Shown: piece by piece, positions 3,310 to 42,299 of the stretch | Layout of the letters: each line of letters opens with the position of its first letter | How positions within the stretch are numbered: position 1 is the stretch's first letter | Virus record (IMG/VR): IMGVR_UViG_3300037247_000717 | Span: 1-47,404 of that record | Direction: 5' to 3' (one strand) | DNA: 47,404 nt | Source of the DNA: a virus | Made by a program: the position numbers and the translations under genes | Notes under the pieces: model-generated | Database searches by the model: none | What the model saw: the letters and a program-made list of their open reading frames with translations, nothing else | What the model was told of the DNA's origin: nothing

Positions 3310-3762
3310 CTAAACAAAAGCCACTTGTGTCGATTCGATCCGGCCCACTACCAATACGTTCAACCAGAAGAGCTGGGCGCTATTCTGTTCAATGTTGATA
3401 ACCGCCTGACCGTCGGCATCGGTCACAAACTCTTGGTACTTCTTATTCGCCATCACCTGCCGCATCCCATAAGCATCACTATAGCCGGCGATGTTGAAGT
3501 TGACGGCGGTGGTGCTGGGCGCCACGTCGGGGTTCACCGCCAACCAAGCCTTGGCCAAGAACCGCCCCGCCAGATTAGTTCCTTCCTTATCCTGTACTTG
3601 AACGACGACCTGCCGGATGTCACCAATCTGCTCGGTAATGCTGACGAACTTGACAAAGTGTTCCCGATCTTGAGTGTTAAGCTGTTGCTGCAATCGGCGT
3701 ACCGCCCGCTCGGTAAGTACATCCGGCAAACCAGCGCTGACTTTCGTTGGTTTTCCGCTCAT
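3310..3762 (-). CDS. Tail-associated structural protein, unknown
   Basis: 150 residues. Its ATG overlaps the stop codon of the hub gene by four bases (ATGA). The C-terminal 100 residues look beta-rich (alternating hydrophobics, for example VVVQVQDKEGTNLAGRF and FWLNVLVVGRIESTQVAF), which would suit a small immunoglobulin-like or appendage-binding domain. No family was recognised; coupling to the hub gene suggests a tail component. Confidence 0.65.
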   Translation of the reverse strand: MSGKPTKVSAGLPDVLTERAVRRLQQQLNTQDREHFVKFVSITEQIGDIRQVVVQVQDKEGTNLAGRFLAKAWLAVNPDVAPSTTAVNFNIAGYSDAYGMRQVMANKKYQEFVTDADGQAVINIEQNSAQLFWLNVLVVGRIESTQVAFV

Positions 3763-6125
3763 CGTCGTCCTATGACCCCCATGTCCAACTCAAAGCCTAA
3801 TATCCGCGTCAGGGCTGGAGTCCCCGATGCGGCAAAATATATACCCATTCGTTGTGCATAGCGCCCCATATGGATCGGTCTAGTGCGGGCGACAGTCCGA
3901 CTGAGCACTCCGCTTCCAGCAATGTTCGCATCGTCTTCCAAGAACCAGCCGGTCGCCATCGAGGCCCCAGTAACCGCTGATACTGCTACCAGCGGTGTGC
4001 AGTAATGAAAGCGCTTGTACTGGCCCGCCATGCCGTAATCGCTACGTGCACCTTTCCACCACCAACTAACGCCAACGCCCGAATCTTTGACTACCGTATC
4101 ATCCCAACCGCCCAGCACCCCGACGGTCCCGTCCGCCCGCCCGAAGTACAGCACATCAGGTGCGTCACTGCGCGCCCAGCAGGTGGCCTCTAAATCCCAT
4201 TTGGTCCACGGCCCTGGCGCCGCAGCGCTCTCCTCGCCATAGTGGTATACCAGCACAATATCGTTTTCAGACGCCCCACTGGTCCGGGCGCTGAGCAGAT
4301 AGAACTTACGGTGCTGATCGTTAACAGCAGTCATCCACTTAAACTGGGTGTTATCCAGCGTCGCCCAAGTGCCCGTTATCTCTTCGGACATAAGAATCGC
4401 CCGCTGGCCATCGAAGCGGTACACGCCGTTCTCATCAGCGAAGTAGACGAAGTTGCCGATAGCCACCACGCTACCGTGTGCCACACAGCCAGTGCCCGGA
4501 ACGGCGGTAATGAAATCACCGGCCAAACCAGGCTCGCCGACCTGCACTACAATCGAGTTGTCGGTAAAAATGACCAACTCGCCAAAGGCGGGGATGATAG
4601 CCTTGACCTCGTATCCGACGCTGCCACCCATGTCATTCCAATTAACTGCCGGGACCGATTCGGGCAAGTCCGGCTCGCTGAAATAGACCCGCGTGGGGAA
4701 CTCGGTGAACTTGTAGTACATTCGGGTTTGATGCCAGACACACAATTCTGGCGTACCCGGCAGGCTGTCGTTGTTCTCACTAAGAAGCCCGTCCTTAGTT
4801 TTAATCACATCGCCGTCTGCCACACTATCCGTGTATTGGCCTGCAAAAGTGGCTGTCGTAACAAGATGGTAGGCAGTTTCCCCATCGCTCACCTTACGAC
4901 GATAGACACCCATCAGATCACCGTGAGCATTGGCGTTAGCGGATATTAAGAGGTCCACGTCCTTGTTGGCTATAGCGGCTACCTGTGATGTATTGCTAGG
5001 ATTCGACTCGTAACTGGTCTTGGAATCAATGACCGTCACGCAGTAATCATACGTACCGCTCAAGCCAGTACCGTCACCGGCGCCGACCGACGCCAAGACC
5101 GGCGGTATCAATCCGACTGGACTAGCAAAGGCCGTCGTATAGCGGAACATAGTGGTCAAGGCGTCGGCGGCGTAGAGCCGATCGTTAGCCACCGCAAAAC
5201 TCGGCAGCACATCGGCTGTATCGTTGCCGTGGAGCTGGGCGAACGTGCTACCGTCGAGCTTGTGCATGGCTCGCTGGCTGCGGACAAACACCGTGGGAGA
5301 GCCATCTATCTTGGCGTTGTAGAGCCCGAAGATGCGCCCCGCCGTGGTGCTGTAATCGAAGCTGGTGCTGTCGAAGCCGTAGCTTGGCGCTACCGTAGTA
5401 TTCTCTGCTTCTAAGAGCAGTGCCACGCGCGCTGTGGTCTGAGTATGTGTGGCATCAAGATTAAAGGCGATTTGCTGTAAGGAGTTCACGTAGCCGCTGC
5501 CCCAATAGAAGGTACAACTGAACTGGCTCGTCGCGGGCTGTTCAACCACGGCCCGGCAAGGGATGGTGCCCACTATAGGATCGGTGGTCTCGCTTTGCTT
5601 TTCAGCCCCGCCATATTGGATGTTGGCGTAGCCTTCGGTGCTATCGGTGTGCCGCAAACGGAAATCAAGAGTCCATGCCTTGTTTGGTGTAAGGACTGAG
5701 AATATACAGGTAGTCTGCACATCGGTATCCAGAGCGCTAGCCGGTCCAATTACCTCCCATTCAAAGGTCTGAGTTGGCGAGACTTCGTGCATATGGAACA
5801 AGCGGGCGAAGGTTGCGTCAGCTTCGGCCGATAACTGGTTAGCCGCTATGAGTAACGGCGGCGGATACCCTGTACCGTAATATTCCCAGTTACCCCCAGC
5901 AGCGCCATTGGTCCGCGTGAACTTGTCCGAGTATCCGGCCACTGGAATAGCCGCCGTAGTATTTGTCACTGTATAGCCCGGCCGACTCTCAATGGCCCCG
6001 GCCCGAATCACTACGTTGTTCAAGTCCGCAGCCCACGAAGGATCCAACTGCCGCCGGTCGGCATTATCATTGAGCCCCCGGAAAGGCCCGTGAAACCGGA
6101 ATATCCTGGCCAGGTTCCTAGGCAT
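3759..6125 (-). CDS. Large tail hub/nozzle-like protein
   Basis: 788 residues. It opens with PFRGLNDNADRRQLDPSWAADLNNVVIRAGAIESRPGY, a start typical of phage proteins that define open reading of tail nozzle or stabilisation proteins, followed by repeated beta-strand segments (FVRSQRAMHKLDG, YFADENGVYRFDG) that look like beta-propeller blades. It follows the adaptor gene with an eight-base overlap, as in P22-like tail modules where gp4-type adaptor precedes gp10-type hub. A hub or nozzle role is inferred from architecture and order; direct homology cannot be tested here. Confidence 0.7.
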   Translation of the reverse strand: MPRNLARIFRFHGPFRGLNDNADRRQLDPSWAADLNNVVIRAGAIESRPGYTVTNTTAAIPVAGYSDKFTRTNGAAGGNWEYYGTGYPPPLLIAANQLSAEADATFARLFHMHEVSPTQTFEWEVIGPASALDTDVQTTCIFSVLTPNKAWTLDFRLRHTDSTEGYANIQYGGAEKQSETTDPIVGTIPCRAVVEQPATSQFSCTFYWGSGYVNSLQQIAFNLDATHTQTTARVALLLEAENTTVAPSYGFDSTSFDYSTTAGRIFGLYNAKIDGSPTVFVRSQRAMHKLDGSTFAQLHGNDTADVLPSFAVANDRLYAADALTTMFRYTTAFASPVGLIPPVLASVGAGDGTGLSGTYDYCVTVIDSKTSYESNPSNTSQVAAIANKDVDLLISANANAHGDLMGVYRRKVSDGETAYHLVTTATFAGQYTDSVADGDVIKTKDGLLSENNDSLPGTPELCVWHQTRMYYKFTEFPTRVYFSEPDLPESVPAVNWNDMGGSVGYEVKAIIPAFGELVIFTDNSIVVQVGEPGLAGDFITAVPGTGCVAHGSVVAIGNFVYFADENGVYRFDGQRAILMSEEITGTWATLDNTQFKWMTAVNDQHRKFYLLSARTSGASENDIVLVYHYGEESAAAPGPWTKWDLEATCWARSDAPDVLYFGRADGTVGVLGGWDDTVVKDSGVGVSWWWKGARSDYGMAGQYKRFHYCTPLVAVSAVTGASMATGWFLEDDANIAGSGVLSRTVARTRPIHMGRYAQRMGIYFAASGTPALTRILGFELDMGVIGRR

Positions 6126-18020: not shown

Positions 18021-18596
18021 CTACAGCGCCCTGCCAATCACCAGCGCCTCTTCGGCATCGCCCATATCAATCTCAGGGTAATGCCACGCGTGGCCAGTCA
18101 GGTCTATCCGCAAAACCGAGCTGCCATTCGTGACGACGGCCACTTCGTAGGGCGCCAGCGCGTTGGTGATGGTCAGCGTATCCGCCTCGAAATACGTGGT
18201 CCCGGTCGCCAGACTAGTCGGATGGGTGCCAGTCTCCCTGGCCCCCAAGATAACTGCCACATCCATCAACGGCAGACCGTGGCCGTTCTCCGGCCAGGCA
18301 ATAATGCGAGCTGCATATGTGAGGTCTGCGACCGTGGTGCCGAAGAACCGATAATTCCACATCAACGCCCCGCCGATAGGCTGTGGCCCACCGATAGTCG
18401 CATTCCAGTCCGGCTTATTGGAGAAGGCGAAGTCAGTGATGGCACTATCGTCGGTCGTCACCCCCATGCGCAGGGCCAACGGGACCATTATAATATCGCG
18501 AAGTAGTCCACCGGTTCCGGCCGTGTTACCCCGGCTCGGTACCGGGCTCTTCTGCATCGACCGGGCTATCTGGCTGCTCAGACCCTCTAGTGGCAT
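18021..18596 (-). CDS. Virion surface-block protein of unknown function
   Basis: 191 residues. The ATG has a strong GAGGAG upstream even though that site lies inside the end of the radical SAM gene (71-base overlap). The C-terminal 100 residues look beta-rich (FEADTLTITNALAPYEVAVVTNGSSVLRIDLTGHAWHYPEIDMG). It is the first gene of the surface-protein block and immediately follows the modification cassette. Family not recognised. Confidence 0.65.
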   Translation of the reverse strand: MPLEGLSSQIARSMQKSPVPSRGNTAGTGGLLRDIIMVPLALRMGVTTDDSAITDFAFSNKPDWNATIGGPQPIGGALMWNYRFFGTTVADLTYAARIIAWPENGHGLPLMDVAVILGARETGTHPTSLATGTTYFEADTLTITNALAPYEVAVVTNGSSVLRIDLTGHAWHYPEIDMGDAEEALVIGRAL

Positions 18597-19755
18597 GATT
18601 CAGCTCCTCAAAATGGCACACGTCAGTAATGGCCGGACCGTCATACGGCACCAGCTCATCAAGGCCGAAACGCTTCTGATACTGAGGCGTCGGCCCCTCG
18701 CAAATGGGTCGTAGTGCGCAGTCATCGCACTTTTCATTGGCCCTATCGCGAGCGATCCGGTCACATATCTGGCGGCGGAACGGCGCCCGCTGGTCACTCG
18801 GCGGCGCCGGTAGACGCTGAGTTGATTCTAAGGCCCACTCCCAGGGATCGTGCTGACCCTGGTAAAAGCCAATACAGTTTCGCTCAAACCCGCCCGTTTT
18901 AGCAACACAAAACGGGAAATACCTGACGTTTACTTCCCAACCCTTTGCCTCTAAAGCACTTATGGCAGCCGCCAGGGGACCAACCAAGTCCTTGCCCTGA
19001 GCCTGAAAGTCGATGACCTCCTTGCCGTCCCAGGCGTGGAAGGGGTTGAACTGTATGAAGTTACAGACAGTGGGCGGGAAGTTGTCGGCCAGAAACCGGC
19101 CATATGCCGGTAGGCATTCCAGGTTGGTCGAGGTCAGCGTGCAGTTGAAACGGACTGGCTGGACGCACTTCTGGGCTCCGATAACAGTACGACTGAATGG
19201 GTCATGCGCGAGTGCATGACCTGGTTCTGCTTTTCCCTTTCGACGAACAAGGTCGTTGTGTTCTTTTTCCAAGCCGTGTAGCGAGACCAACCAATCATCC
19301 AGCCCGGCATCCTCGATGCGAACTGTGTAGCTCTCCTTGCCCAATCGTTGCCCATGCGTGATGACCGTGGGAGCCAGCCCGATATTCGCACAATGCCGCA
19401 CCAGCTCCGGCAACTGGTCGAAGATGGTCGGCTCACCCCCGCTGATATCGGTAGCGGTCAAACCATAGTACCAGCACTGCCGATTGGCGATCATCATCAT
19501 GGTCGGCAGGTCGTAGAACATCTTATCAGGCAGGGTGGCGTAGTAGCAGAACTCGCAGTCCATATCACAAGGCCCACCGGCATTGCCCATGAACAGCCAG
19601 CCGCGCTCGGTCGGTTCACCGTGAGGGCGGAGAACGGGTCGCCCGCTTGCGGGTTTTTGCCTTTTTGCACTTGGCGACTTTTTTCGTTTCGGCTTTTTGT
19701 GGACCCTTGGCTTGCCGCCTGAAGTGGCGCGGGTCGTCGATGATTTCGCCGTCAT
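18526..19755 (-). CDS. Radical SAM enzyme (second of two)
   Basis: 409 residues from the ATG at 19755, which has GGAG five bases upstream; an in-frame ATG at 19590 would avoid the overlap with the upstream gene but lacks a ribosome site. The cluster motif is C-x3-C-x2-C (CDMDCEFCYYA; cysteines at 63, 67 and 70 of this start), followed by DISGGEPT, the SAM-binding GGE. A C-terminal cysteine set (CIGFY..., KCDDCALRPICEG) looks like a SPASM-type auxiliary cluster region. Such enzymes use a 4Fe-4S cluster and SAM to make a radical, often on peptides or sugars. The basic 50-residue N-terminal extension overlaps the end of the upstream radical SAM gene in another frame. Substrate unknown. Confidence 0.82.
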   Translation of the reverse strand: MTAKSSTTRATSGGKPRVHKKPKRKKSPSAKRQKPASGRPVLRPHGEPTERGWLFMGNAGGPCDMDCEFCYYATLPDKMFYDLPTMMMIANRQCWYYGLTATDISGGEPTIFDQLPELVRHCANIGLAPTVITHGQRLGKESYTVRIEDAGLDDWLVSLHGLEKEHNDLVRRKGKAEPGHALAHDPFSRTVIGAQKCVQPVRFNCTLTSTNLECLPAYGRFLADNFPPTVCNFIQFNPFHAWDGKEVIDFQAQGKDLVGPLAAAISALEAKGWEVNVRYFPFCVAKTGGFERNCIGFYQGQHDPWEWALESTQRLPAPPSDQRAPFRRQICDRIARDRANEKCDDCALRPICEGPTPQYQKRFGLDELVPYDGPAITDVCHFEELNHATRGSEQPDSPVDAEEPGTEPG

Positions 19756-20776
19756 AGGACTCCGGCCTCCATTTGGGGTGTATCTCGACATATATCTTGC
19801 TGCTGCCGTCACATATGTTCACCAATGAACACTTCTCGCATTCCGGGTGGCGATGACCGCAGCCGATGCTATTTCGCAGGCTCCAGAAATTGAAGAAGGC
19901 GTGGGCGAAGCTCTCCGCCCATACCCCGGAGCGCGCAGCCTGTAGCCATAAATCCATAATCGTTGCATTGGGCACATTTGCATAGGCCCGCACGTCCCAC
20001 TCCAGTGGATCGTAGACGATCTGCGGATAATTGGTAACATGTGATTCGAGCCCTTTATACCCACAGAACGGCACATATCGCAGGTTGGTGGTGATGCCTG
20101 CCTTCTCGTAGGTCTCGACGAACTCGCGCACGTAGGGTAGGGCCACGTCATGCCTGACCACCAACTCCGATGCCTGCGGCGCCCGTTGCAGCCAACCGGC
20201 CAGCGGATTGAAGTTGATGATATTATGGTTGGTCGGTGGATGTTGCAGGTAGGCCAGATAGCCAGCCAGTTCCGGCAATCCCGGCGCCGACAGGGCAGTC
20301 AAGACAGTATTGGCCCGCCAGGACTTCTTCATAGCTGTCAGGGCTTGAATCAACCGCGACCACGCGTCGTCGGCCGGTTGCCGGGTCATTGCCCCGTGGG
20401 TCTCTTTGGTGCCGTGGATACTGACCAGCCATTCGGCAACACCCGCCTTTTCCAACGCCTCCACCTTCTGCGGCCTGACCAGCCCGTGGGTTATCAGGCA
20501 CAGGGGGATGCCCAGTTCAGCCGCGTACTCCGCTATCTCGATGATGTCCGGGTGCAGGGTGGGCTCGCCGCCGGTGAAGTCGCACATGGTCAAGTCGAAG
20601 TCTTTACGGAAGCGCTTGAGCCGAACCTTGATTTCAGCAACCGGCATCCACTTCCGCGCCTTGCGATCCTCGAACCGATGGTAGCACATCAGGCAGTCCA
20701 GGTCGCAGCGATGGCCCACGTCGATACAGCCGCGTCTGGTTACACCGTCAAGATCGTTCAGGTCAGATAAGTCCAT
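19616..20776 (-). CDS. Radical SAM enzyme (first of two)
   Basis: 386 residues. Residues 24, 28 and 31 form the C-x3-C-x2-C motif (CDLDCLMCYHR), followed by CDFTGGEPTLHP (GGE motif) and a C-terminal cysteine set (CGHRHPECEKCSLVNICDG) like SPASM-family auxiliary cluster ligands. The tail is a lysine/arginine-rich extension. It resembles its downstream neighbour in the core (both have a SIHG/SLHG segment after the GGE and an NFNP segment), so the pair may be paralogues. Its start overlaps the stop of the sulfotransferase-like gene by 14 bases. Likely modifies a peptide, sugar or cofactor; target unknown. Confidence 0.85.
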   Translation of the reverse strand: MDLSDLNDLDGVTRRGCIDVGHRCDLDCLMCYHRFEDRKARKWMPVAEIKVRLKRFRKDFDLTMCDFTGGEPTLHPDIIEIAEYAAELGIPLCLITHGLVRPQKVEALEKAGVAEWLVSIHGTKETHGAMTRQPADDAWSRLIQALTAMKKSWRANTVLTALSAPGLPELAGYLAYLQHPPTNHNIINFNPLAGWLQRAPQASELVVRHDVALPYVREFVETYEKAGITTNLRYVPFCGYKGLESHVTNYPQIVYDPLEWDVRAYANVPNATIMDLWLQAARSGVWAESFAHAFFNFWSLRNSIGCGHRHPECEKCSLVNICDGSSKIYVEIHPKWRPESYDGEIIDDPRHFRRQAKGPQKAETKKVAKCKKAKTRKRATRSPPSR

Positions 20777-21419
20777 ATCGTTCTCGCCAATCAGGGAACC
20801 AGCGGTTCATATGCGGCCCGGCGTGTTCCATGATGTGCTCCCATTGTTCATCGGACCATTGCGGTATACCCAGCTCCTGCAACTGGTTTTCCCAGGGAGC
20901 AGGAATGGGGTCATATCCCAGCCATCGGCATAACAACGGTACTTCCGCAGCGTAATCATCAACCCGGACAACTCGCCAGAGACGGGCCGGTATTTTAGCA
21001 AACTCCGTTTCCGCCATAGCGTTACATGCAACCCAAAACGAGACGGCCTGCTCAAACCGCGTTGTCGCTTTGGGGTGAATCCCGAGCGCCTTATTCCATT
21101 GCGGCAAATCACCAAACGTAGGCATAGGGCCAACCATTGAGCGCACCGTTTGCACCACACTTCGCAGCAACCAGACCAACTTACATTGCGGATATACGTC
21201 CCGAATAATTCCGAGAAGCCAGGGTAAATTACCGCCGCTGCTCACTGCATCATAATCCCGACCCCAGTCGGTAATAATCTCTCGGGCACGAGCTAAATCA
21301 GGTCGATGTCCACCCACCGGGATATTCGGCTGGTGGACAGCGCGCAGTCCTAATCGCTGGAATAGTTGCCATGTACTTAGTGTCGCCGAACGGCCAGTTC
21401 CAAATGCAATAACCTTCAT
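20763..21419 (-). CDS. Sulfotransferase-like protein
   Basis: 218 residues. The N-terminus MKVIAFGTGRSATLSTWQLFQRLGL matches the PAPS-binding loop (FGTGRSGTS-like) of sulfotransferases, followed by a VWLLRSVVQTVRSM segment like the 3'-phosphate site (LLRDP..SM). It would transfer sulfate from PAPS to a hydroxyl, typically on a sugar. It overlaps the methyltransferase stop by four bases and is one of a chain of glycan-tailoring genes. Confidence 0.75.
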   Translation of the reverse strand: MKVIAFGTGRSATLSTWQLFQRLGLRAVHQPNIPVGGHRPDLARAREIITDWGRDYDAVSSGGNLPWLLGIIRDVYPQCKLVWLLRSVVQTVRSMVGPMPTFGDLPQWNKALGIHPKATTRFEQAVSFWVACNAMAETEFAKIPARLWRVVRVDDYAAEVPLLCRWLGYDPIPAPWENQLQELGIPQWSDEQWEHIMEHAGPHMNRWFPDWRERYGLI

Positions 21420-21955
21420 TTCTTATGCACCCACCACACTGCATCACCAGCCGTCTGAACGGCATCGCCATAGAGGGCATCGACTGCCGGCTTAACATCA
21501 TGATGGGCCGACGAACCGTAGTCATGTCCGGCTATAATTCCTCCGAATTTTACTCGCAACCCCCACTCACGAGCGTCATGTTCTATGAACGGCTTACTGT
21601 GATTGGCGTCGATAAAGACCCAATCCAACGATTGATGCGGGAAGATCTTAACCGCCTCTTCCGAACGCATATGAAGATGCACAAAGCGCAGATTCTTCTT
21701 TGCCACGGCAACGGCACCATTTAAGCCTTGTGAAAGTTTATCGCGAGAACAGGCGCTGTCTTTTCCGCCCCCTACCGCTGCGACAAACTCTAGATATTCG
21801 ATAAACGGGTCTACACCCCACACGGAACATGACGGCATTGTCAGATAGGTATTTATGCCACCACAACCGAGGATGCCTATTTCGGCGCCAACCGTAGCCC
21901 GACCTTGAAAATGCGCCATGAACACCTTTTTAATTTCTTCCGCAAAGCCCGCCAC
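21416..21955 (-). CDS. Class I SAM-dependent methyltransferase
   Basis: 179 residues. GRATVGAEIGILGCGGINTYL holds motif I (VGAEIG), SVWGVDPF the acidic motif II, and LDWVFIDANHSKPFIEHDAREWGLRVKFGGIIAGHDY the form seen in the Methyltransf_24 group that often works on sugars of glycans. It shares start/stop overlaps with the glycosyltransferase on one side and the sulfotransferase on the other. Likely O-methylates a glycan; acceptor unknown. Confidence 0.75.
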   Translation of the reverse strand: MAGFAEEIKKVFMAHFQGRATVGAEIGILGCGGINTYLTMPSCSVWGVDPFIEYLEFVAAVGGGKDSACSRDKLSQGLNGAVAVAKKNLRFVHLHMRSEEAVKIFPHQSLDWVFIDANHSKPFIEHDAREWGLRVKFGGIIAGHDYGSSAHHDVKPAVDALYGDAVQTAGDAVWWVHKK

Positions 21956-22803
21956 TACAACTCCTCCGCCACTTCAAAGACTCTCTGTAGTCGTTTCTCG
22001 TAACTGTGATTATGTGCTATATTGGCCAACCTGCTGCCGCGTTGGCGGGCTTCGGCCGGGTTCTTCAAGAGATGGTCGATACGATCAGTCATTTCCTGCA
22101 CCGTCTTATAGATCAGTATCGCATCGCCAAAGAGTTCAGACTGCCCTTCAGCGCTGTCAGCCACCAGCGCTGCTCCAGCAGCAGCGGCCTCGAATACTCT
22201 CATGTTGAGGTCGCCGGCCAGGCTCTTGTTCCATGCTACCTTAGCCCGGCTATAGATACCGGCCATATTCTCGTGAATGTATCCCGCTCCGATGGCGGAG
22301 TTCTTGCCGTATCGCCGTGACAGCAAGTGTGCCATCCAAGTCCGCTCGGCGAACAACGGGTTCAATGAAGTAGTTAGCACGCTGGCTACGTCAATGTCAC
22401 GTTGCTTGTTGGCCGACGGATAGAAGAACGCCGCATGGGGCAGCCATTCGACTCTCGTTAGATTGTGCTCGCCGGTCAGTAACTCGACCACGTTCTTCTG
22501 ATGGCAGAACACGAAGTCGGCGGCCTTGGCCTGTTTAATACGATCAACTCCGTCGGGCACGTGCATATCTTCGAGCATGTAGATCAGGGGTCGCCAGGTG
22601 GCCGGAAACGGAAAGTCGAAGCTATCGTCGAGGCGGACATACACATCGCAGTCCGGTTTCTGCATGGGCTTGAACTGGTGGGGTCCGACCTGTTCCATAC
22701 AAAGAACGATGGAATGCTGGGGGTAAGCTTGACGGATCACCCATTCCCAATACGCTTGGTAGTTATCAGGCCGGGTCGCTTGATGTATCAGTCCGAGCTT
22801 CAT
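21955..22803 (-). CDS. Glycosyltransferase, GT-B fold (CgeB-like)
   Basis: 282 residues from the ATG at 22803 (TGGAGAAT upstream). The N-terminal domain has a TWRPLIYMLEDMHVPDGVDRIKQAKAADFVFCHQ segment; the C-terminal domain ends with LNMRVFEAAAAGAALVADSAEGQSELFGDAILIY, the nucleotide-sugar-binding pattern (E-x7-E-like with FE and LF) of CgeB-type glycosyltransferases. It overlaps the small cysteine-rich gene upstream by 38 bases. Likely adds a sugar to a virion glycan or host surface glycan. Confidence 0.78.
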   Translation of the reverse strand: MKLGLIHQATRPDNYQAYWEWVIRQAYPQHSIVLCMEQVGPHQFKPMQKPDCDVYVRLDDSFDFPFPATWRPLIYMLEDMHVPDGVDRIKQAKAADFVFCHQKNVVELLTGEHNLTRVEWLPHAAFFYPSANKQRDIDVASVLTTSLNPLFAERTWMAHLLSRRYGKNSAIGAGYIHENMAGIYSRAKVAWNKSLAGDLNMRVFEAAAAGAALVADSAEGQSELFGDAILIYKTVQEMTDRIDHLLKNPAEARQRGSRLANIAHNHSYEKRLQRVFEVAEEL

Positions 22804-22972
22804 ATTCTCCACACCAATCCTCTTCTTGGGTCAACGCCCAGACGGTAAAAACACTGCCAGGCCGGCGCGGCGTATTGCATGGCATGGGATAGGGTGAGCG
22901 ACGATGGCACTCGCCGGTCATACTTCCGTCGGTGTCCCACCAGCGACAGGAACGGCAACATCGGTCACTCAT
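22766..22972 (-). CDS. Small cysteine-rich (zinc-binding) protein
   Basis: 68 residues. Cysteines occur as CCRSCRWWD, GECHRRSP, PCNT and WCGEYE, a pattern of a small zinc-binding phage protein. It sits between two glycosyltransferase genes, overlapping each by a few bases. The reading frame has an ATG with AGTG-type upstream sequence and no strong ribosome site. Function unknown. Confidence 0.55.
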   Translation of the reverse strand: MSDRCCRSCRWWDTDGSMTGECHRRSPYPMPCNTPRRPGSVFTVWALTQEEDWCGEYEARTDTSSDPA

Positions 22973-23813
22973 AGCTAATCGCCACTCCCATTGCCGTCAG
23001 CTTCTCCTGCCCCCACTTCTTCACCAGCTTGGCATGGTTGGTCTTCAGTAGTTCGCCAAAGTCGAAGTTCTTGGTAAACGTGGCGCTCATATCGTGGTGC
23101 ACGTAGATGTCAGATGACAGCGCGCACTTATAACCAGCCTCACGCAGACGTAACGAGGCGTCGATATCTTCTGAGTTGCCGGGCTCGAACCGTTCGTCCC
23201 ACAACCCGCGCGGGTCGGCTATCTTGGCCATCGCCTCTTTGCGGTACATGCAGGCGAAGCTGATAAGCCAAGGTACGAATATCGGCCCGGTCTCACCGTG
23301 GTCGCCGCTCTTATGATTGATCCATTCCTTGAGGTAGGTCTCCGGCACTTTGAATATCTGCTGGTAGCCTGCCACACGGTCGCTGGTAGCACCGGCGGCG
23401 CCGACTATGGAATCGTCGAAATGCTTCATCCAGCGTTCGAGCCAGTCCTTATCGCCGTCGGGGATGCGGGCGTCGTTGTCGAGGATCAGGATGAACTGGG
23501 CGGGCGACAGATAGGAAAGCATGAAACCTACGTTGGAGGCGCGGACAGCGCCCATGTTGGTGGGCAAGCATACATATTGGATACGTTCATCATACGGATA
23601 GTCCACGCCCATAGTGTGTGGCACCCGGTTAATCCACAATGTTGTTAACTCGTTAACCGGCGGCGTATTTTCGACCACGGTGAGACGATACAAACTAGGA
23701 GTAGTATTCTTGATAATGGACTCTACACACACCTCAGTCATTGCGGCCTCTTTATAGCACCGCACGATAATGTCAACCGGGTACTTGCGACGCCCGAACG
23801 GTTCAGTTTTCAC
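22965..23813 (-). CDS. Glycosyltransferase, family 2
   Basis: 282 residues. The GT-A form is visible: VDIIVRCYKEAAMTEVCVESIIKNT at the N-terminus, NMGAVRASNVG, then ILILDNDARIPDG with the metal-binding DxD (DND) and EPGNSEDIDASLRLREAGYKC (ED acid pair and D). It transfers a sugar from a nucleotide-sugar donor with inversion. It overlaps the upstream glycosyltransferase by 11 bases. Confidence 0.85.
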   Translation of the reverse strand: MKTEPFGRRKYPVDIIVRCYKEAAMTEVCVESIIKNTTPSLYRLTVVENTPPVNELTTLWINRVPHTMGVDYPYDERIQYVCLPTNMGAVRASNVGFMLSYLSPAQFILILDNDARIPDGDKDWLERWMKHFDDSIVGAAGATSDRVAGYQQIFKVPETYLKEWINHKSGDHGETGPIFVPWLISFACMYRKEAMAKIADPRGLWDERFEPGNSEDIDASLRLREAGYKCALSSDIYVHHDMSATFTKNFDFGELLKTNHAKLVKKWGQEKLTAMGVAISYE

Positions 23814-24738
23814 AGATCAGCCCTCTCGGCAGTTCAGGGGTAGTAATCCGGTGGCTGGCCGCCACCAGTTCAGATACTGCCGCGTTACGACGCTCCGCAG
23901 CGATCTGGCCATGCGCCCAGTCCATGTAATGGCCGATGTCGAAGCTGGTATCCCCGACGTGGCCCACCTGACAGCCGGTATCAACGTAGACCTTGAAGCC
24001 CGCCGCCTGCACCCGCCGGCAGAAGCTCACGTCCTCGCCCAGAAGGTGAGTGCCTCTACGAGAATCCAAGCCCAGTTCAAAACTCTTGAGCATGATCTGT
24101 CGGGCAATATCGTCAGGCTTGGCGTCATCGGGCCATTCCCGCTTGAGTTGTTCGTCCACCAGCGTCTTGAACTCTTCTTCGATGGTCAATCGTGGCGCCC
24201 GGTCCATATGGAACCACACATCCCCATCGATGGTCTCTTCCTTGACAGCTTCCAGCACGTCACGGCGGATCAGCATGGCACCGGTCCCGACGTGCAGGCA
24301 TTCGATCAATGCCCCCTCCTGGCGGTCCAGGATGTTCAATAGTGGCCAGGTGGTGTGTTCGGCTACCGGGCAGCAGGCGGGCTTGAACGGGTAGCGCCGT
24401 CGGACGGCCGTGGCACCCACTACCCCAACGTCGTGCGACAGGAGCCGGTGCATGATCGACGCTTCCAGCCGATCCATATCCCCATCCACAAACCAGACGT
24501 GCGTGAAGTTAGGCACCTCTTGATAGGCAATGCGAATACCGTCATTGCGGCTATAGGGCAGCAGCGTACCGGCTACCACCACGTAGCTAGCCGCCCCCGA
24601 CGTGCCTACCAGCTTGAGCAGATCGGCAACGCATTGCGGCTTAACCGAATCCCAGACTGACATGCAGAGCACGACCCGATGCTTCCAGTGCTCCATGTCT
24701 TGGGAGCGGGCCAGCAGTTGTGCACGAGTGTTATCCAT
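23803..24738 (-). CDS. Glycosyltransferase, GT-A type
   Basis: 311 residues. FTHVWFVDGDMDRLEASI holds the DxD motif (DGD); VGTGAMLIRRDVLEAV and LLGEDVSFCRRVQAAGFKVYVDTGCQVGHVG hold the acceptor-site and catalytic ED region typical of GT-A enzymes. It is the first clear gene of the modification cassette, following a small frame at 24754-24879. Confidence 0.8.
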   Translation of the reverse strand: MDNTRAQLLARSQDMEHWKHRVVLCMSVWDSVKPQCVADLLKLVGTSGAASYVVVAGTLLPYSRNDGIRIAYQEVPNFTHVWFVDGDMDRLEASIMHRLLSHDVGVVGATAVRRRYPFKPACCPVAEHTTWPLLNILDRQEGALIECLHVGTGAMLIRRDVLEAVKEETIDGDVWFHMDRAPRLTIEEEFKTLVDEQLKREWPDDAKPDDIARQIMLKSFELGLDSRRGTHLLGEDVSFCRRVQAAGFKVYVDTGCQVGHVGDTSFDIGHYMDWAHGQIAAERRNAAVSELVAASHRITTPELPRGLICEN

Positions 24739-36344: not shown

Positions 36345-36525
36345 CGTTCTGCTCCTTCTCCGCCTGGAGTTCGTCGATCTTGCGCAGCGAGCCTTTCACC
36401 GCCTCCCTCCCAGACGACAGCGTATGCGCCATCAGTTGGTCGGACTCCCTAGCGATCCCATCAGCCATCGCCGCCTCTCTTTCCTCCAGCCATTCCCTCA
36501 GCTTGTCCATATCACTTTTTGCCAT
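36331..36525 (-). CDS. Small coiled-coil protein
   Basis: 64 residues; GAGGATAACG before the ATG. One long charged helix (KLREWLEEREAAMADGI, LRKIDELQAEKEQ). It overlaps both neighbours by 14 bases. Function unknown. Confidence 0.6.
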   Translation of the reverse strand: MAKSDMDKLREWLEEREAAMADGIARESDQLMAHTLSSGREAVKGSLRKIDELQAEKEQNDGQE

Positions 36526-37291
36526 CGTTATCCTCCTGGCCCATACAGTAGGCCGTCGTCAGTTCGGTTATCCGCCGGTGGATACGCTCGTCGAAGAATT
36601 CAGCCATGTACTCCACAGGCAGATTGGCGCTCAGGTCGGTGTGAACACCACACTCATATCTGCCATTCAATACGTCGTAGGTGATGTTCGCCGCCACTGC
36701 CTGCTGGCCTTTACTCAGGTCAGCCAACCCTGCTGCCAGGTCGTCTATGGCCAGGTAGTCCAGCTCGACCAGGCTGCGGACCACGCTGGACTCGGCCTGG
36801 TCGTTCTTGCCCCAGGTCGCTGTCACCTCCTGGCACATAGCCCGCCAGTTGACCAGCCGAGCCGTAAAGCCCCGTCTTGCAGCCGCCAGCGTCCGAGCAC
36901 ACAACATGTGGGTTTTGTGACAGCCCACCGGCCCCCAGAAATACAATGGCCCCTGACCGTGTTCGATGATTAGAGCCGACCAATGACGGTTCAGCCCGTG
37001 GTCGTGGAAGCTTGGCGGCCGACCATGCCGCCAGAAACCTTTATTGACGCCCACCTGCTGGCAGAGGCGGGCCAGCAGTGGGGCCATAGCTGATGGTGCG
37101 GTCAGAGCCACAGTCCATTCATTTCGGCGCGTAGCCCGTTCCGTGCATGTCTCACAGACCTTAATCCCGGAGCGAGGGGCTTCTGGATGTGTCAGCCCGC
37201 AGCCTGGACACAACGGCCAGAAGTTCAGGCTACCGAAGACGCCCACGTTTTGCTTTGCTACCATCCCAACTTCCGCGTTGATTCTGGTCAT
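36512..37291 (-). CDS. DnaC/IstB-like helicase loader ATPase
   Basis: 259 residues from the ATG at 37291 (AAGGGG six bases upstream; GTG at 37297 possible). An N-terminal zinc finger (CPGCG, KVCETC) is followed by an AAA+ domain: Walker A region GPVGCHKTH, in which the usual G before K is replaced by H, Walker B YLAIDDLA, and an RIHRRI sensor-like arginine region near the end. This is the build of phage helicase loaders. It follows the initiator-like gene, as in many phage replication modules. Confidence 0.75.
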   Translation of the reverse strand: MTRINAEVGMVAKQNVGVFGSLNFWPLCPGCGLTHPEAPRSGIKVCETCTERATRRNEWTVALTAPSAMAPLLARLCQQVGVNKGFWRHGRPPSFHDHGLNRHWSALIIEHGQGPLYFWGPVGCHKTHMLCARTLAAARRGFTARLVNWRAMCQEVTATWGKNDQAESSVVRSLVELDYLAIDDLAAGLADLSKGQQAVAANITYDVLNGRYECGVHTDLSANLPVEYMAEFFDERIHRRITELTTAYCMGQEDNDGKK

Positions 37292-38027
37292 GTCCACCCC
37301 TTGCTATCAGTTCCGCCAGGCATCCCGGCATCACGCTCAGCTTGTGGCCTTGCTTGGCTGCCCAGCCTTCTAGCTCCAGGTAGGCGTCCACAAAGCCCTT
37401 GGCAGTGATCAGGTCGTCACCTGCCGCTCGCAGGACCGCTTGAACTGCCCTGGCGTCCTTGCCGCCCTCGTGAGGATAGCCTTGATCATCGTGCTTGGTC
37501 TTCCAGGCTTTGCAGAAGTAGTCCGTCAGGGGTTTGTAGTTCGGGTTGGTCTTCTGCTTCTTGGAAGATGCGTCGGGGCGCGCAGCGCCCTTCTTAGTTC
37601 TTGTTCTTAACTTGTTCTTACTGTTACGTCCCCCCGTGTCACCCAGTTGGGCACATTTTTGGGCTGAGTCCAACGTTGGACTGAGCCCAGATTGGCTCGT
37701 GCCAGATTGACCCCTGTTACTGGGCCCAGATTGGACCCTGTTAGCGAACAAGCCGAGTGGCCCGCCCTGCCACTCGTAAACTGCTGCTTGGTGGTCGCGA
37801 CGGCCCTCACTGACTAGGCGAAACCAGCCGGCCAATATCAGTTCAGCCACAGCCCGCCGAACCGTATTGCGACCCAGCCCTGTCTCTCGTTGAAGCTGGT
37901 AGATTGAGATCGTGACCATATTGCCCTTGCCCTGGCCGACATCCAGCATGGCCCAGGCTACCAGCTTGGCCCTGGCTTGCAGGTCGGTGGCCCGCCGGAT
38001 CGGCTTACCGTCCTTGATGGGGTTCAT
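37230..38027 (-). CDS. Helix-turn-helix replication initiator-like protein
   Basis: 265 residues; GAGGTTCCTGA before the ATG. The N-terminus holds a winged helix-turn-helix (ISIYQLQRETGLGRNTVRRAVAELILAGWFRLVSEG), then a basic low-complexity linker (about 100-165) and a C-terminal domain (YKPLTDYFCKAWKTKHDDQGYPHEGGKDARAVQAVLRAAG). This arrangement is like DnaD-type or phage O-type initiators. It overlaps the loader gene by about 62 bases. The origin may lie in this gene, but I could not identify iterons. Confidence 0.7.
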   Translation of the reverse strand: MNPIKDGKPIRRATDLQARAKLVAWAMLDVGQGKGNMVTISIYQLQRETGLGRNTVRRAVAELILAGWFRLVSEGRRDHQAAVYEWQGGPLGLFANRVQSGPSNRGQSGTSQSGLSPTLDSAQKCAQLGDTGGRNSKNKLRTRTKKGAARPDASSKKQKTNPNYKPLTDYFCKAWKTKHDDQGYPHEGGKDARAVQAVLRAAGDDLITAKGFVDAYLELEGWAAKQGHKLSVMPGCLAELIARGGHDQNQRGSWDGSKAKRGRLR

Positions 38028-38053: not shown

Positions 38054-38917
38054 CTATGCAACGTGTCGGTGCCCGCCCTTAGCTTCGTGCCATTCTTCGG
38101 CAACCGGCAGACCCTCAAGCGCCCGCCATGCCTTGTGCAAGTCTACCAGGAACCGCTTGACCATGTACCGGATGGCCATGTTGTGCCGATGACCCTTGCT
38201 CACGTCCTTGTAGGTGTCGTGGTGCTCCAGGCGGTGCTTGTAGTCGTCGTAGTGGTCGCGATAGGGGCTCTTGGACCGCAGGAACGACCCGCCCAACACG
38301 CCCAGCAGCTTGGTCTTCAAGAATGGGTTGAAGGTGATGCTCTTGCGGGTCGCTGGCTTGCCGTCCTTATCCTCGTAGTCCACGTCAATCAGGTGCTCGG
38401 CACGTCGGCTGCGCCCTTGGCCGTCCTTAGCTACGTCCAGCCCTGCATACTTCCACAGACTCGACGGGTAGCGGGCGCGGTGGATGTCGATTTCGCTGAT
38501 AATCACCCCAGCCATCGCCGGGCCAACACCCTTGACGCCCTCCAAGAACTTGGTGTAGAGCGGAAAGCCCTTGAGGATATGCCCCAGCCGCTTGAAGTGT
38601 GTCGCTTCGGATTCTTCCAGCGAAACGTACTGGGCCAACAGGCATAGCTCGGTGTAGGTGCTGATTACCTCGTCGCCCTCGAAGTCCAATGGGCGGGGAA
38701 AGGTCTTGACACCATCGGTCAGCTTCTTGAATCGCATCCGCAGGTCCGCCAGCAGCCGTTTGGCTTCGGCGTCGAGTTCGCGTTCAGGCTTAGACGGCTT
38801 CTGGCCTAGTTTGGCCTTGAAGTTGGCGACGATACGGTTGCCCATTTGAATACGGAGCTTCTGGATGTCGTAAGCTCCCCGTACTACTGTCTTTAACTGC
38901 GCTTTGTCATTCTGCAT
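38054..38917 (-). CDS. tas: Tas protein of a TIGR-Tas system, nuclease-less (TasA-like)
   Basis: 287 residues from the ATG at 38917. A start 24 codons upstream exists, but those codons are array units and the true ATG has AGAGAGGAG six bases upstream. The order is a basic helical N-terminus (KTVVRGAYDIQKLRIQMGNR), a helical middle, a helix-hairpin-helix GVKGVGPAMAGVIISEI at 127-143, then LWKYAGLD, a basic insert and a final HNMAIRYMVKRFLVDLHKAW helix at 245-264. The helix-hairpin-helix/YAGL/final-helix order is that of the C-terminal region of IS110-family transposases, related to the Nop fold of box C/D proteins. No RuvC-like DEDD domain and no HNH are seen. With the 36-bp array directly upstream it fits Tas proteins: an RNA-guided DNA binder. 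A simple database hit would call it an IS110 transposase. Confidence 0.88.
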   Translation of the reverse strand: MQNDKAQLKTVVRGAYDIQKLRIQMGNRIVANFKAKLGQKPSKPERELDAEAKRLLADLRMRFKKLTDGVKTFPRPLDFEGDEVISTYTELCLLAQYVSLEESEATHFKRLGHILKGFPLYTKFLEGVKGVGPAMAGVIISEIDIHRARYPSSLWKYAGLDVAKDGQGRSRRAEHLIDVDYEDKDGKPATRKSITFNPFLKTKLLGVLGGSFLRSKSPYRDHYDDYKHRLEHHDTYKDVSKGHRHNMAIRYMVKRFLVDLHKAWRALEGLPVAEEWHEAKGGHRHVA

Positions 38918-39510
38918 GGCACGCTCCTCTCTATTGGGTTTCTCGTAATCAATGGCACGCTTAGGGAGTCTGGTTTTATCTGGCTCCATGGCCCGCTTGC
39001 TAACAGTGGGTTTCTAGCGGCGGGTGGCCCGCTCGTGCGGTCTGGGTTACTGTTTTACAATGACACGCTCCTATATTTTGGGTTCCTAACATGTACTGGC
39101 TCGCTTCGATAGTCTGGGTTTCTCCACGACATTGACTCACTTGCGGTCGTTGGGTTTCTGCCTGTGTTTGGCCCGCTTTGACGCATTGGGTTTCTGATCT
39201 TAACTGGCTCGCTCCTCGTATTTGGGTTACTTCGGTAGCCTGGCTCGCTTCGTGCCCACGGGTTTCTATTTGGCCATGGCCCGCTTGTTGACAATGGGTT
39301 TCTAGCCTTGCTTGGCCCGCTCACCTACACTGGGTTACTCTCGTCTTTTGGCTCGCTTTCAGGGTTTGGGTTTCTTCCATGCTGTGGCTCGCTCGGTGAT
39401 CTTGGGTTTCTTACGGGATATGGCCCGCTTGTCGTGTCTGGGTTACTCATATTATCTGGCTCGCTTGACACGTTTGGGTTCCTAGTTTACATTGACCCGC
39501 TTGTTCCGCC
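38917..39510 (-). repeat. TIGR array: 36-bp units with two repeats and two spacers
   Basis: Seventeen copies of a 9-bp repeat (minus AGCGRGCCA; plus TGGCYCGCT) occur at exactly 36-bp spacing, at 38917, 38953, 38989, 39025 and so on to 39493. Nine bases after each lies a second 9-bp repeat (minus AGNAACCCA; plus TGGGTTNCT). Both gaps are 9 bases and differ from unit to unit, giving 33 spacers. The second repeat is degraded in unit 38953 (plus TGGTTTTAT) and absent after 39502. Repeats vary at one or two fixed positions. The array starts three bases after the stop of the gene at 39513 and ends in the tas start codon, so it is probably transcribed with tas from the minus strand. Confidence 0.93.
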
Positions 39511-39512
39511 AT

Positions 39513-39908
39513 TCATGTAACATGGGTCAGGTTGTAAGTTTCCGTCATCACCCTCGCACAACCGTCACACTTCACTTGTTGCAGCCGCGTACCAACCCCG
39601 TAGGTAGCGCCGAAATTAATAATCCGAGGGGATTGGCAATGTGGACAGTGGGCGCCATGATCTTTAACATAGTCCTCTACCTGTTTTGGTGTCAGTGTCA
39701 TCGGTTTGCTCCTCTCTGCCTTGGCTTTATCGAGGATGGGGTTGACTAGCTTCAGCAGGATGGCCGCTTCGGTTGGCATTTGCTCGTGCTTCTGCATGTC
39801 TGTTGCGTGGTTATGAATTGCCTTGCACACCCCCACCAGCGCGGCGTTGAGGAAGTGCAGGTGGGCAATTTCAGCTAGAAGATCATGGAAACTTCGTTCG
39901 CTCATCAT
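39513..39908 (-). CDS. Two small phage genes fused in frame: helical domain plus zinc ribbon
   Basis: 131 residues. The first 69 form a helical domain (SFHDLLAEIAHLHFLNAALVGVCKAIHNHA). Residue 70 is a methionine (ATG at 39702-39700) with AGAGAGGAG eight bases upstream, and from there the protein is a zinc ribbon (TPKQVEDYVKDHGAHCPHC..., VKCDGC) related to the gene at 30803-31015. No stop separates them, so a fusion and a free zinc-ribbon product are both possible. The stop lies just before the array. Confidence 0.65.
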   Translation of the reverse strand: MMSERSFHDLLAEIAHLHFLNAALVGVCKAIHNHATDMQKHEQMPTEAAILLKLVNPILDKAKAERSKPMTLTPKQVEDYVKDHGAHCPHCQSPRIINFGATYGVGTRLQQVKCDGCARVMTETYNLTHVT

Positions 39909-40713: not shown

Positions 40714-41244
40714 TTAAAAAGGTATATCGTCGTCCTCTATCGGAATAGCCTCTGCCACCTTCGCCACATCATCGGGGGTCAGCTCAAATAGCTGTGCCAC
40801 CCGGCCGTAGACCTTGTTATCTTTCTTGCTCGGCGGACCATCCTCTACGACAGCACCAACCTTGCGGTGCATGAAAATGCCTTCCAGTCTAGGCCAGTTG
40901 CCAACCACTACCTGGCACTGGGCCTTGGCCTTCTTCTCATCGTCTAAGCTCTGAGTCAATTGGATCAGGTTGGCCTCGTTGTACTCCAGGGGCATATTAT
41001 GCCGGGTGTCCTCATCTACGCCGCACGCCTTGGCGAACACTTGCCACGTCCAGAGGCAATTACCCTTGAGCCACAACGCCTGCTTAGTCTTACCCTCAGC
41101 CGCCTGGAGGATGAACTGGACGCCGTGATTGCCACTCTTGGAATTGAAGACTTCTTCCATGCCCGCTATCTGGCACAAGTACCGCCCTTCGCGCAGCCAG
41201 TTATGACCACCGCCCACTGCTTCGACTTCTTCGTCAATGTTCAT
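40714..41244 (-). CDS. DUF669-like single-strand DNA-binding protein
   Basis: 176 residues. The domain WLREGRYLCQIAGMEEVFNSKSGNHGVQFILQAAEGKTKQALWLKGN...WTWQVFAKACGV is the pattern of DUF669/SSB-like phage proteins, and the end EAIPIEDDDIPF is an acidic tip like that of SSB. It is next to the ATPase gene (four-base overlap), the normal arrangement for these recombination/replication pairs. Confidence 0.78.
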   Translation of the reverse strand: MNIDEEVEAVGGGHNWLREGRYLCQIAGMEEVFNSKSGNHGVQFILQAAEGKTKQALWLKGNCLWTWQVFAKACGVDEDTRHNMPLEYNEANLIQLTQSLDDEKKAKAQCQVVVGNWPRLEGIFMHRKVGAVVEDGPPSKKDNKVYGRVAQLFELTPDDVAKVAEAIPIEDDDIPF

Positions 41245-42299
41245 TCCTTCGCTCCGTTCAGTTCGATCTTGCGGGCGTCCTTGACCTTGCCCAACGCCCG
41301 GTAGTCTTCAGGGGTCAATCGTCCACCCGGCTTACGCGGGGAGTCCTTTTGGATCGTCGTCCATAGCGCCTTGAGGCGAGCCACGTCCTCCAACATCAGC
41401 AGTTGGGCCTTGTACTGCTCCATGATGCCGTTGCTCGCAGCCTCTAAGGCCTTTTTCGCTTCGGCCTGTTCGATCAAAACACTCGCATCGTTCTTGGCCG
41501 CAGCTTCCGGTGAGTAGGTGCGCACTGCCCCGCTGCCGTCCATTACGTCGAGCCACGGCTTAAAGGCTTCCACAACCGCAACCCTGGCTGCATCGAGCGT
41601 CTTCTGTTTGCGGAACCGGAAGATGTCTGCTTCCAGGCCCTCGGTGTCGCACTTCTCGATAAACGCCTTGTAGATACCGAACTCCTCAGCGCCCATCTGC
41701 TGCTTGTTCAGTTCCATGCGAATCAGCAGCCCCAGCCCATACGGCGTCTCCTTCTCCGACGCGGCTTTATAGCCCACAATGACCTTCTGTAAAACGCCTT
41801 TGTCGTTGGGGATGTCTTGATACTGGGCACCCTGCCGAAAGGTCATGCCAAGGTGCATCGGCTGGTTGCTCAGATACGCAATGAGCAATTGCCACATCTG
41901 TTTGATGGGCTTCCACTGCTCGAAGCTGTTGGTGCCAGCCTTGGTCTTAACCCAATCGCTTGAGTCTTGCAGCGTACTCCAGGGCACCGACATGCTGTCA
42001 ATAAAACAGACCCCATGCGTGGTCGGGTCAAGGGCCTCAGCCGCCAGCTTAGTATCCTTAAACCCCTCGACGTGTACACGGTCAAAATCGAAGCCAGCTC
42101 TAGCTAGAATATCTGACCGTCCTCCCTGCTCAGTATCGATCAGAGCTATGCGGTGCGGCTTGCCAGCAGCCTTGAGCCGGTTGCTAAGTGCTTCGGCTAA
42201 CATCATGCCGGTAAAGGACTTACCGCTCCCCGTTTCGCCATACAGCCCGAACCGAGCCCAAGTATTCTCTGCCACCGCTTTTTTAAACGTTACCATCAT
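41241..42299 (-). CDS. AAA_24/Sak4-like ATPase
   Basis: 352 residues; AAAGGAGACGG before the ATG. RFGLYGETGSGKSFTGMMLAEAL holds Walker A, VCFIDSMS Walker B. The RecA-like core with ALIDTEQGG and VIVGYKAASEKETPYGLGLLIRMEL is typical of phage AAA_24/Sak4-type ATPases that partner SSB-like proteins in annealing or recombination. The C-terminus is a helical extension. It probably acts on phage DNA replication or repair. Confidence 0.82.
   Translation of the reverse strand: MMVTFKKAVAENTWARFGLYGETGSGKSFTGMMLAEALSNRLKAAGKPHRIALIDTEQGGRSDILARAGFDFDRVHVEGFKDTKLAAEALDPTTHGVCFIDSMSVPWSTLQDSSDWVKTKAGTNSFEQWKPIKQMWQLLIAYLSNQPMHLGMTFRQGAQYQDIPNDKGVLQKVIVGYKAASEKETPYGLGLLIRMELNKQQMGAEEFGIYKAFIEKCDTEGLEADIFRFRKQKTLDAARVAVVEAFKPWLDVMDGSGAVRTYSPEAAAKNDASVLIEQAEAKKALEAASNGIMEQYKAQLLMLEDVARLKALWTTIQKDSPRKPGGRLTPEDYRALGKVKDARKIELNGAKE

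What the first reader, a model, noticed from the sequence alone, without database searches (positions are those of the whole stretch)
38054..39510. TIGR-Tas system in a phage replication operon
Seen: a 36-bp periodic array with two different 9-bp repeats and two 9-bp variable spacers per unit (16 full units plus a half unit), directly upstream of a co-directional gene with a helix-hairpin-helix/IS110-C-terminal (Nop-like) region. Known: TIGR arrays give 36-nt tigRNAs with two spacers and work with Tas proteins carrying a Nop domain, found in phages and parasitic bacteria. Inference: this is a complete phage-borne TIGR-Tas locus, likely expressed early with the replication genes, which could target competing phages, plasmids or host loci through the tandem spacers. 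The array is long, regular and rich in distinct spacers, so it records many targets.
Basis: partly seen in the sequence, partly recalled or inferred. Interest (0 to 1): 0.97.

Follow-up and report, generated by a model that had tools for sequence, protein, structure and literature searches.

The report
Phage TIGR-TasA dual-spacer RNA-guide locus
This phage carries a genuine TIGR-Tas locus (an array encoding 16 dual-spacer guide RNAs joined directly to the gene for their nuclease-free partner protein TasA), a kind of RNA-guided DNA-binding system first described in 2025, and its many relatives show how such arrays change over time even though their targets remain unknown.

Summary
On the minus strand, 39501-38917 holds 16 units of edge repeat (AGCGRGCCA), 9-nt spacer, loop repeat (AGAAACCCA), 9-nt spacer, plus a closing edge repeat. 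The closing repeat runs into the ATG of a 287-aa co-directional gene. The protein passes NCBI's TIGR-Tas model, matches solved TasR and TasH in sequence and predicted fold (Z about 18), and lacks their N-terminal nucleases. It is therefore TasA. Eighty viral relatives (53-69% identity) were pulled; 77 carry a parsed period-36 array, always on the gene's strand. In edge repeats the two predicted base pairs (2-7 and 3-6) are the most strongly covarying columns. So this is a new member of a known kind (Faure et al. 2025). Newer points concern the clade: spacers turn over fast; whole A+B cassettes are gained and lost at internal positions; related pairs recur inside arrays; gene and array often share bases. 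Natural targets were sought in kin contigs, in self, and by five IMG/VR pattern scans. Nothing exceeded chance. The claim that the array 'records many targets' is unproven, and no acquisition machinery was seen. The best mechanism is tigRNA-guided DNA binding without cleavage, expressed within the replication operon.

The parts
38917..39501 (-). TIGR array: 16 units of edge (9) + spacer A (9) + loop (9) + spacer B (9), plus a closing edge repeat; transcribed 39501 to 38917
   Evidence: 33 repeats at exact 18-nt spacing, all 32 spacers 9 nt, period-36 self-match far above shuffles
38054..38917 (-). tasA gene, 287 aa: coiled-coil helices plus helix-hairpin-helix/IS110-C-terminal-like (Nop-type) domain, no nuclease
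38917..38934 (-). junction: last spacer B (ATAGAGAGG) and closing edge repeat (AGCGTGCCA) supply a Shine-Dalgarno-like AGAGAGGAG; the last base of the repeat is the A of the tasA ATG
   Evidence: the role in translation is inferred
37230..38027 (-). O-like replication initiation gene directly downstream (26 nt between the genes; same operon inferred)
   Evidence: phrog_678 E 1.4e-9, phrog_270 E 1.6e-9
36512..37297 (-). DnaC-like helicase loader
   Evidence: phrog_50 E 1.7e-21
39513..39908 (-). 131-aa gene of unknown function whose stop codon lies 11 nt upstream of the first edge repeat; no terminator-like site between it and tasA
40714..41244 (-). SSB-like gene of the same replication module
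   Evidence: phrog_378 E 5.4e-5
41241..42299 (-). recombinase-like AAA ATPase (phrog_1366); the same family lies beside tasA in relative L040

Best explanation
A TIGR-TasA locus of a tailed phage. The array is transcribed with the replication operon and should be processed, as in studied TIGR systems, into 36-nt tigRNAs that each begin and end inside an edge repeat. A TasA dimer should bind the AG...CCA box D/box C ends of edge and loop, so that spacer A pairs with one DNA strand and spacer B with the other over a contiguous ~18-bp site (top strand = spacer A followed by the reverse complement of spacer B, 0-2 bp gap). As no nuclease is present, the complex most likely unwinds, bends and occupies its target, blocking transcription or replication rather than cutting. 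Shown here: array, gene, fold, family membership, edge-repeat base pairing by covariation, conserved gene-array coupling, location in the replication module. Inferred: transcription, processing, DNA binding, and interference with competing DNA as the biological purpose (the least certain step).
For: NCBIfam NF052498 TIGR_Tas 131.5 bits, cut-off 100. phmmer to TasR 9mty E 2.6e-13 and TasH 21kl E 4e-8; family profile E 1.1e-22 and 1.4e-13. AlphaFold model pLDDT 82.6, pTM 0.74; Foldseek's first 11 hits are all TasH/TasR; VIA Z 18.0 TasH and 17.8 TasR, then IS110-family recombinases (ISCro4, IS621) about 12 and Nop56/Prp31-type about 8. Model residues 1/3-287 align to TasH 64-300 and TasR 110-303, so the nuclease part is absent. 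77 of 80 viral relatives have a parsed period-36 array on the gene's strand. In 894 distinct units the top mutual-information pairs in the edge repeat are columns 2-7 (A-T 324, G-C 284, G-T 230) and 3-6 (C-G 754, T-G 54, T-A 52), the two pairs expected from the TasR structure (PMC12045711). Replication or recombination genes lie near tasA in the window and in L006, L010, L040, L071 and L082.
Against: No natural target could be shown. No expression data. The first repeat base is A, not the U of TasR arrays. The terminator said to follow typical arrays is absent here and rare in this clade (6 of 45 downstream arrays against 6.6% of control stretches). In the founding paper a TasR nuclease did not stop plasmid conjugation or phage infection in E. 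coli, only plasmid maintenance (PMC12045711), so an interference role is unproven for the whole family.
Confidence: 0.8

Rival explanations
1. Same machinery, other purpose: the TasA-tigRNA complexes regulate the phage's own or its host's genes, or assist its replication or recombination, rather than attack competing elements.
For: Position inside the replication module in the window and in five examined relatives; no nuclease; exact start/stop codon sharing with the array.
Against: Spacer pairs match their own contigs no better than re-paired spacers: 71 against 61.0 +- 7.7 at up to 3 mismatches (p 0.11), 6 against 3.0 at up to 2 (p 0.06) (an earlier smaller run, looked stronger and did not hold). 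Spacer sets turn over almost wholly between phages with 80-93% identical TasA, which is odd for fixed regulatory sites. Host sites could not be tested, as hosts are unknown.
Confidence: 0.15
2. RNA-targeting box C/D-like particle: the guides pair with RNA (rRNA, tRNA or mRNA) instead of DNA.
For: Nop-type fold shared with box C/D snoRNP proteins.
Against: Much closer to DNA-targeting TasR and TasH than to Nop56/Prp31 in sequence and fold. TasR had no activity on RNA substrates (PMC12045711). No fibrillarin or L7Ae partner was looked for specifically; none appeared among the genes annotated.
Confidence: 0.03
3. The gene is a degenerate IS110-type transposase and the array an unrelated repeat.
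For: Pfam Transposase_20 hit; PHROG 4285 is labelled 'transposase'.
Against: IS110 equivalog model 24.2 bits against a cut-off of 140, while TIGR_Tas is 131.5 against 100. The DEDD catalytic part is missing. Gene and array stay together in nearly every relative found.
Confidence: 0.01

Closest known systems
TIGR-TasA (e.g. Flavonifractor plautii FpTIGR; Faure et al. 2025, PMC12045711)
   Same: Solo Nop-domain protein without nuclease; dual-repeat array with 9-nt spacers and 36-nt period, next to the gene.
   Different: Here the array is upstream and its closing repeat overlaps the start codon; repeats start with AG (or AA) rather than UG; no terminator after the array. No FpTasA sequence was at hand for a direct comparison.
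TIGR-TasR (Thermoproteota TaTasR, PDB 9mty)
   Same: Nop-type fold (VIA Z 17.8), C-terminal sequence similarity (E 2.6e-13), repeats ending in CCA, same two paired positions in the edge repeat, 18-nt split guide.
   Different: No RuvC domain, hence no cleavage expected; box D is AG instead of UG.
TIGR-TasH (Salicola phage CGphi29, PDB 9w04/9vzx/21kl)
   Same: Phage-borne; fold (VIA Z 18.0); period-36 array beside the gene.
   Different: No HNH domain. The paper gives 16 nt of spacer per SpTIGR guide against 18 nt here.
Uncharacterised locus of Microcystis phage Mvi-JY20 (PP438412)
   Same: TIGR_Tas model hit without nuclease and a short period-36 array.
   Different: 29-31% identity; array downstream; repeats TGCGAGCCA/CGAAACCCA; not annotated in the record.
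IS110-family recombinases (IS621, ISCro4) and box C/D Nop5/Nop56/Prp31
   Same: Nop-type RNA-binding fold (VIA Z about 12 and 8).
   Different: IS110 recombinases have a DEDD domain and one bridge RNA; Nop5/Nop56 work with fibrillarin and K-turn RNAs; none of these was seen here.

Membership tests
TIGR-Tas (as TasA) | Array of two alternating 8-12-nt repeats interspaced by ~9-nt spacers | tested here: met
   16 units, repeats 9 and 9, all spacers 9 nt
TIGR-Tas (as TasA) | Adjacent gene for a Nop-domain Tas protein | tested here: met
   NCBIfam TIGR_Tas above cut-off; fold nearest to TasH and TasR
TIGR-Tas (as TasA) | No nuclease domain (TasA as opposed to TasH or TasR) | tested here: met
   287 aa, no HNH or RuvC match; model aligns only to TasH 64-300 and TasR 110-303
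TIGR-Tas (as TasA) | Box C (CCA) and box D motifs in both repeats, with box C/D and inner edge pairs supported by covariation | tested here: met
   Both repeats end CCA and begin AG; in the edge repeat columns 2-7 and 3-6 have the highest mutual information. Box D reads AG/AA, not UG
TIGR-Tas (as TasA) | Array and gene conserved together in relatives | tested here: met
   77 of 80 viral relatives have a parsed array on the same strand
[quoted passage not shown]
   Array runs straight into the tasA start codon; no terminator-like site on the minus strand. The paper calls this only typical and also reports upstream arrays, so it is not used as an exclusion
TIGR-Tas (as TasA) | Processing to 36-nt tigRNAs bound by the Tas protein | not testable with these tools
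   Needs small-RNA sequencing
TIGR-Tas (as TasA) | Tandem-spacer recognition of both DNA strands | not testable with these tools
   Needs binding assays. In silico target searches gave only chance-like matches
IS110 transposase | DEDD catalytic domain and score above the IS110 equivalog cut-off | tested here: not met
   24.2 bits against a cut-off of 140; no DEDD Pfam hit

The most novel reading that the evidence does not exclude
In this TasA clade, TIGR arrays change by gain, loss, duplication and mutation of whole two-spacer cassettes at internal positions, not by CRISPR-like polar capture. In loci like this one, maturation of the closing edge repeat would also cut the tasA leader, giving built-in feedback between guide production and TasA synthesis.
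Probability: 0.35. Interest if true: 0.7.

Novelty: new member of a known kind. Interest (0 to 1): 0.5.

Why it matters
TIGR-Tas is the newest class of programmable RNA-guided DNA-targeting systems, and its natural targets, purpose and the way its arrays gain spacers are stated open questions (PMC12045711). This locus is an intact, compact phage example. Its 80 relatives supply about 800 spacer pairs with enough near-identical arrays to watch them change, which bears directly on how arrays expand. The nuclease-free form next to replication genes suggests experiments in a natural setting.

Tried and rejected
(1) Spacer targets in 2.1 Mb of TIGR-bearing viral contigs, three spacer arrangements, 0-2 bp gap, up to 2 mismatches: no excess over re-paired decoys. 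(2) Self-targets: an apparent excess in 29 contigs (7 against 2.55) shrank with more contigs and stricter masking (6 against 3.0, p 0.06); rejected. (3) Protein-coding targets: some spacer variants read as synonymous codon changes when A is joined to reverse-complemented B (LRASVL/LRLSVL), but mismatches show no 3-nt periodicity overall (p 0.8); rejected. (4) Conserved middle ('seed') of spacers in orthologous units: p 0.02-0.14 depending on the cut-off; inconclusive. (5) Exact pattern scans of IMG/VR with three window pairs and two retained clade pairs gave about 5, 1, 3, 3 and 0 independent contigs. No decoy pattern was scanned and the collection's size in bases was not known, so these are treated as chance-like, not as targets. 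(6) Host: capsid and portal genes are nearest (<35% identity) to Arthrobacter/Microbacterium/Cellulosimicrobium phages, too weak to name a host. (7) Plasmids: no relative of the protein. (8) A first single-sequence scan for relatives found none; the alignment-based scan found them.

Full report
WHAT IS THERE. Read on the minus strand, 39501-38917 is a strictly regular array of 36-nt units: edge repeat (AGCGRGCCA; R mostly A or G), spacer A, loop repeat (mostly AGAAACCCA or AGTAACCCA), spacer B. There are 16 units and a closing edge repeat, 33 repeats at exact 18-nt steps, and all 32 spacers are 9 nt. Period-36 self-match is 0.622 against at most 0.417 in 100 block shuffles. The spacer pairs, 5' to 3' in the transcript, are ATGTAAACT/AACGTGTCA, GATAATATG/GACACGACA, TATCCCGTA/AGATCACCG, CAGCATGGA/AACCCTGAA, AAAGACGAG/GTGTAGGTG, AGCAAGGCT/TTGTCAACA, TGGCCAAAT/TGGGCACGA, GGCTACCGA/AATACGAGG, GTTAAGATC/ATGCGTCAA, AACACAGGC/ACGACCGCA, ATGTCGTGG/GACTATCGA, GTACATGTT/AAATATAGG, TTGTAAAAC/GACCGCACG, CCCGCCGCT/CTGTTAGCA, TGGAGCCAG/GACTCCCTA and TTGATTACG/ATAGAGAGG. 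The 15th loop repeat is decayed (ATAAAACCA).

GENE AND JUNCTION. The 287-aa gene (38917-38054, minus) starts inside the closing edge repeat: AGCGTGCC-ATG. The last spacer plus the repeat reads AGAGAGGAGCG, a Shine-Dalgarno-like stretch. The upstream gene ends 11 nt before the first edge repeat, no terminator-like site lies on this strand, and the replication initiator starts 26 nt after the tasA stop. The array, tasA and replication genes are thus most simply one transcript (inference).

THE PROTEIN. It exceeds the cut-off of NCBI's TIGR-Tas model (131.5 bits, cut-off 100) and falls far below that of the IS110 transposase (24.2, cut-off 140). phmmer finds TasR (9mty, E 2.6e-13) and TasH (21kl, E 4e-8). 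An AlphaFold model from 28 window and locus sequences (pLDDT 82.6) has the first 11 Foldseek places taken by TasH and TasR structures. The VIA alignment gives Z 18.0 and 17.8 for these, about 12 for IS110-family recombinases and about 8 for Nop56/Prp31-type chains. Only the Nop part of TasH and TasR is matched, so the nuclease domains are missing: this is TasA. The word 'endonuclease' in the NCBI family name would mislead here.

RELATIVES. An alignment-guided scan of IMG/VR returned 80 loci with 53-69% identity. 77 of them carry a period-36 array that could be parsed, always on the same strand as the gene. Five metagenome-assembled prokaryote bins also hold relatives, with period-36 arrays beside them; whether those contigs are host or phage is not known. 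After removing near-copies, 13 arrays lie upstream and 46 downstream of the gene. In 17 of the 46 the tasA stop codon sits inside the first, degenerate edge repeat (for example CT-TGA-GCCA). In the window the start codon sits inside the last one; L006 is nearly the same and L040 is within a few bases. Array position changed at least five times by parsimony on the tree, two of them forced by well-supported branches. Replication or recombination genes lie near tasA in L006 (RecT, DHH), L010 (DNA polymerase), L040 (exonuclease VIII, phrog_1366), L071 (primase-helicase) and L082 (helicase), as in the window. In L034 the two flanking genes sent had no match, and L058 has an endolysin-like neighbour.

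RNA EVIDENCE. Over 894 distinct units the edge-repeat column pairs with the highest mutual information of all 36 are 2-7 (A-T 324, G-C 284, G-T 230; 94% standard pairs) and 3-6 (C-G 754, T-G 54, T-A 52; 96%). These are the box C/box D pair and the additional inner pair seen in the TasR structure (PMC12045711). The 2-7 pair alternates between G-C and A-U between loci (AGCGAGCCA and AACGAGTCA), and L007 (AGTGAACCA) changes the 3-6 pair. The cells count sequences, not independent events.

HOW ARRAYS CHANGE. Phages with identical TasA share nearly all spacers, those at 97-99.9% share 28%, those at 93-97% share 9%, and below 93% sharing is about 0.5% or less. Shared spacers nearly always travel with their partner (115 shared as pairs against 6 singly at 93% TasA identity or more). 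Shared units are mostly collinear (76 of 89 steps). New units appear throughout the array with only weak polarity (shared fraction 0.14 at the 5' quarter to 0.31 at the 3' quarter). Related but diverged pairs occur within single arrays more often than in re-paired decoys (at 3, 4 and 5 differences of 18: 8, 16 and 19 against 1.35, 5.2 and 12.7), 23 of 58 of them one or two units apart. This fits cassette-wise recombination plus duplication and mutation. It does not exclude re-capture of related targets. The founding paper calls the expansion of arrays an enigma.

TARGETS. From the reported cut sites in PMC12045711 I worked out the target as spacer A followed by the reverse complement of spacer B, with 0-2 bp between. 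Searches in kin contigs, in each array's own contig and five exact scans of IMG/VR (clustered) gave nothing beyond what chance could give. Codon-like periodicity and conservation of a central seed were not established.

VERDICT. Membership in TIGR-Tas is as secure as sequence and structure prediction allow; processing and DNA binding are untested. It is a new member of a known kind. Worth keeping are the exact fusion of guide array and gene, the constant company of replication genes, and a set of relatives that lets array evolution be watched.

Noticed in passing
L002 4667-4986 (Microcystis phage Mvi-JY20, PP438412, just after XAI95461): Unannotated TIGR-like array (repeats TGCGAGCCA/CGAAACCCA) downstream of a 'hypothetical protein' that scores 193 bits on NCBI's TIGR-Tas model.
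   Followed up: partly
76 Mycobacterium phage records, Gordonia phage Morrissey, Rhodococcus phage Peregrin, Acidianus tailed spindle virus: Proteins annotated as transposase, DNA-binding/helix-turn-helix or hypothetical are distant relatives (25-30%) of the Microcystis phage Tas protein; their flanks were not checked for arrays.
   Followed up: no
L172, L174, L171, L173, L175: Close TasA relatives with period-36 arrays in contigs binned as Hydrogenedentota, Neomarinimicrobiota, Flavobacteriales, Omnitrophota and Spirochaetales MAGs; possible host clues or phage contigs misbinned.
   Followed up: partly
L059 (IMG/VR record 2894657497, 89.8 kb): tasA with period-36 arrays on both sides (3423-3992 and about 5024-5537) in a record whose number looks like an isolate genome's; no near match among GenBank phages. 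A cultured source would be valuable.
   Followed up: partly
window 18526-24738 (-): Cluster of two overlapping radical-SAM genes, a sulfotransferase-like gene and three glycosyltransferases, unusual cargo for a 47-kb phage.
   Followed up: no
window 38961-38997 (unit 15, loop repeat): Loop repeat decayed to ATAAAACCA although both flanking edge repeats are intact; may be a dead guide.
   Followed up: no
L080 5112-6733: Very long, partly degenerate array (about 44 units, many 10-nt spacers) downstream of tasA.
   Followed up: no
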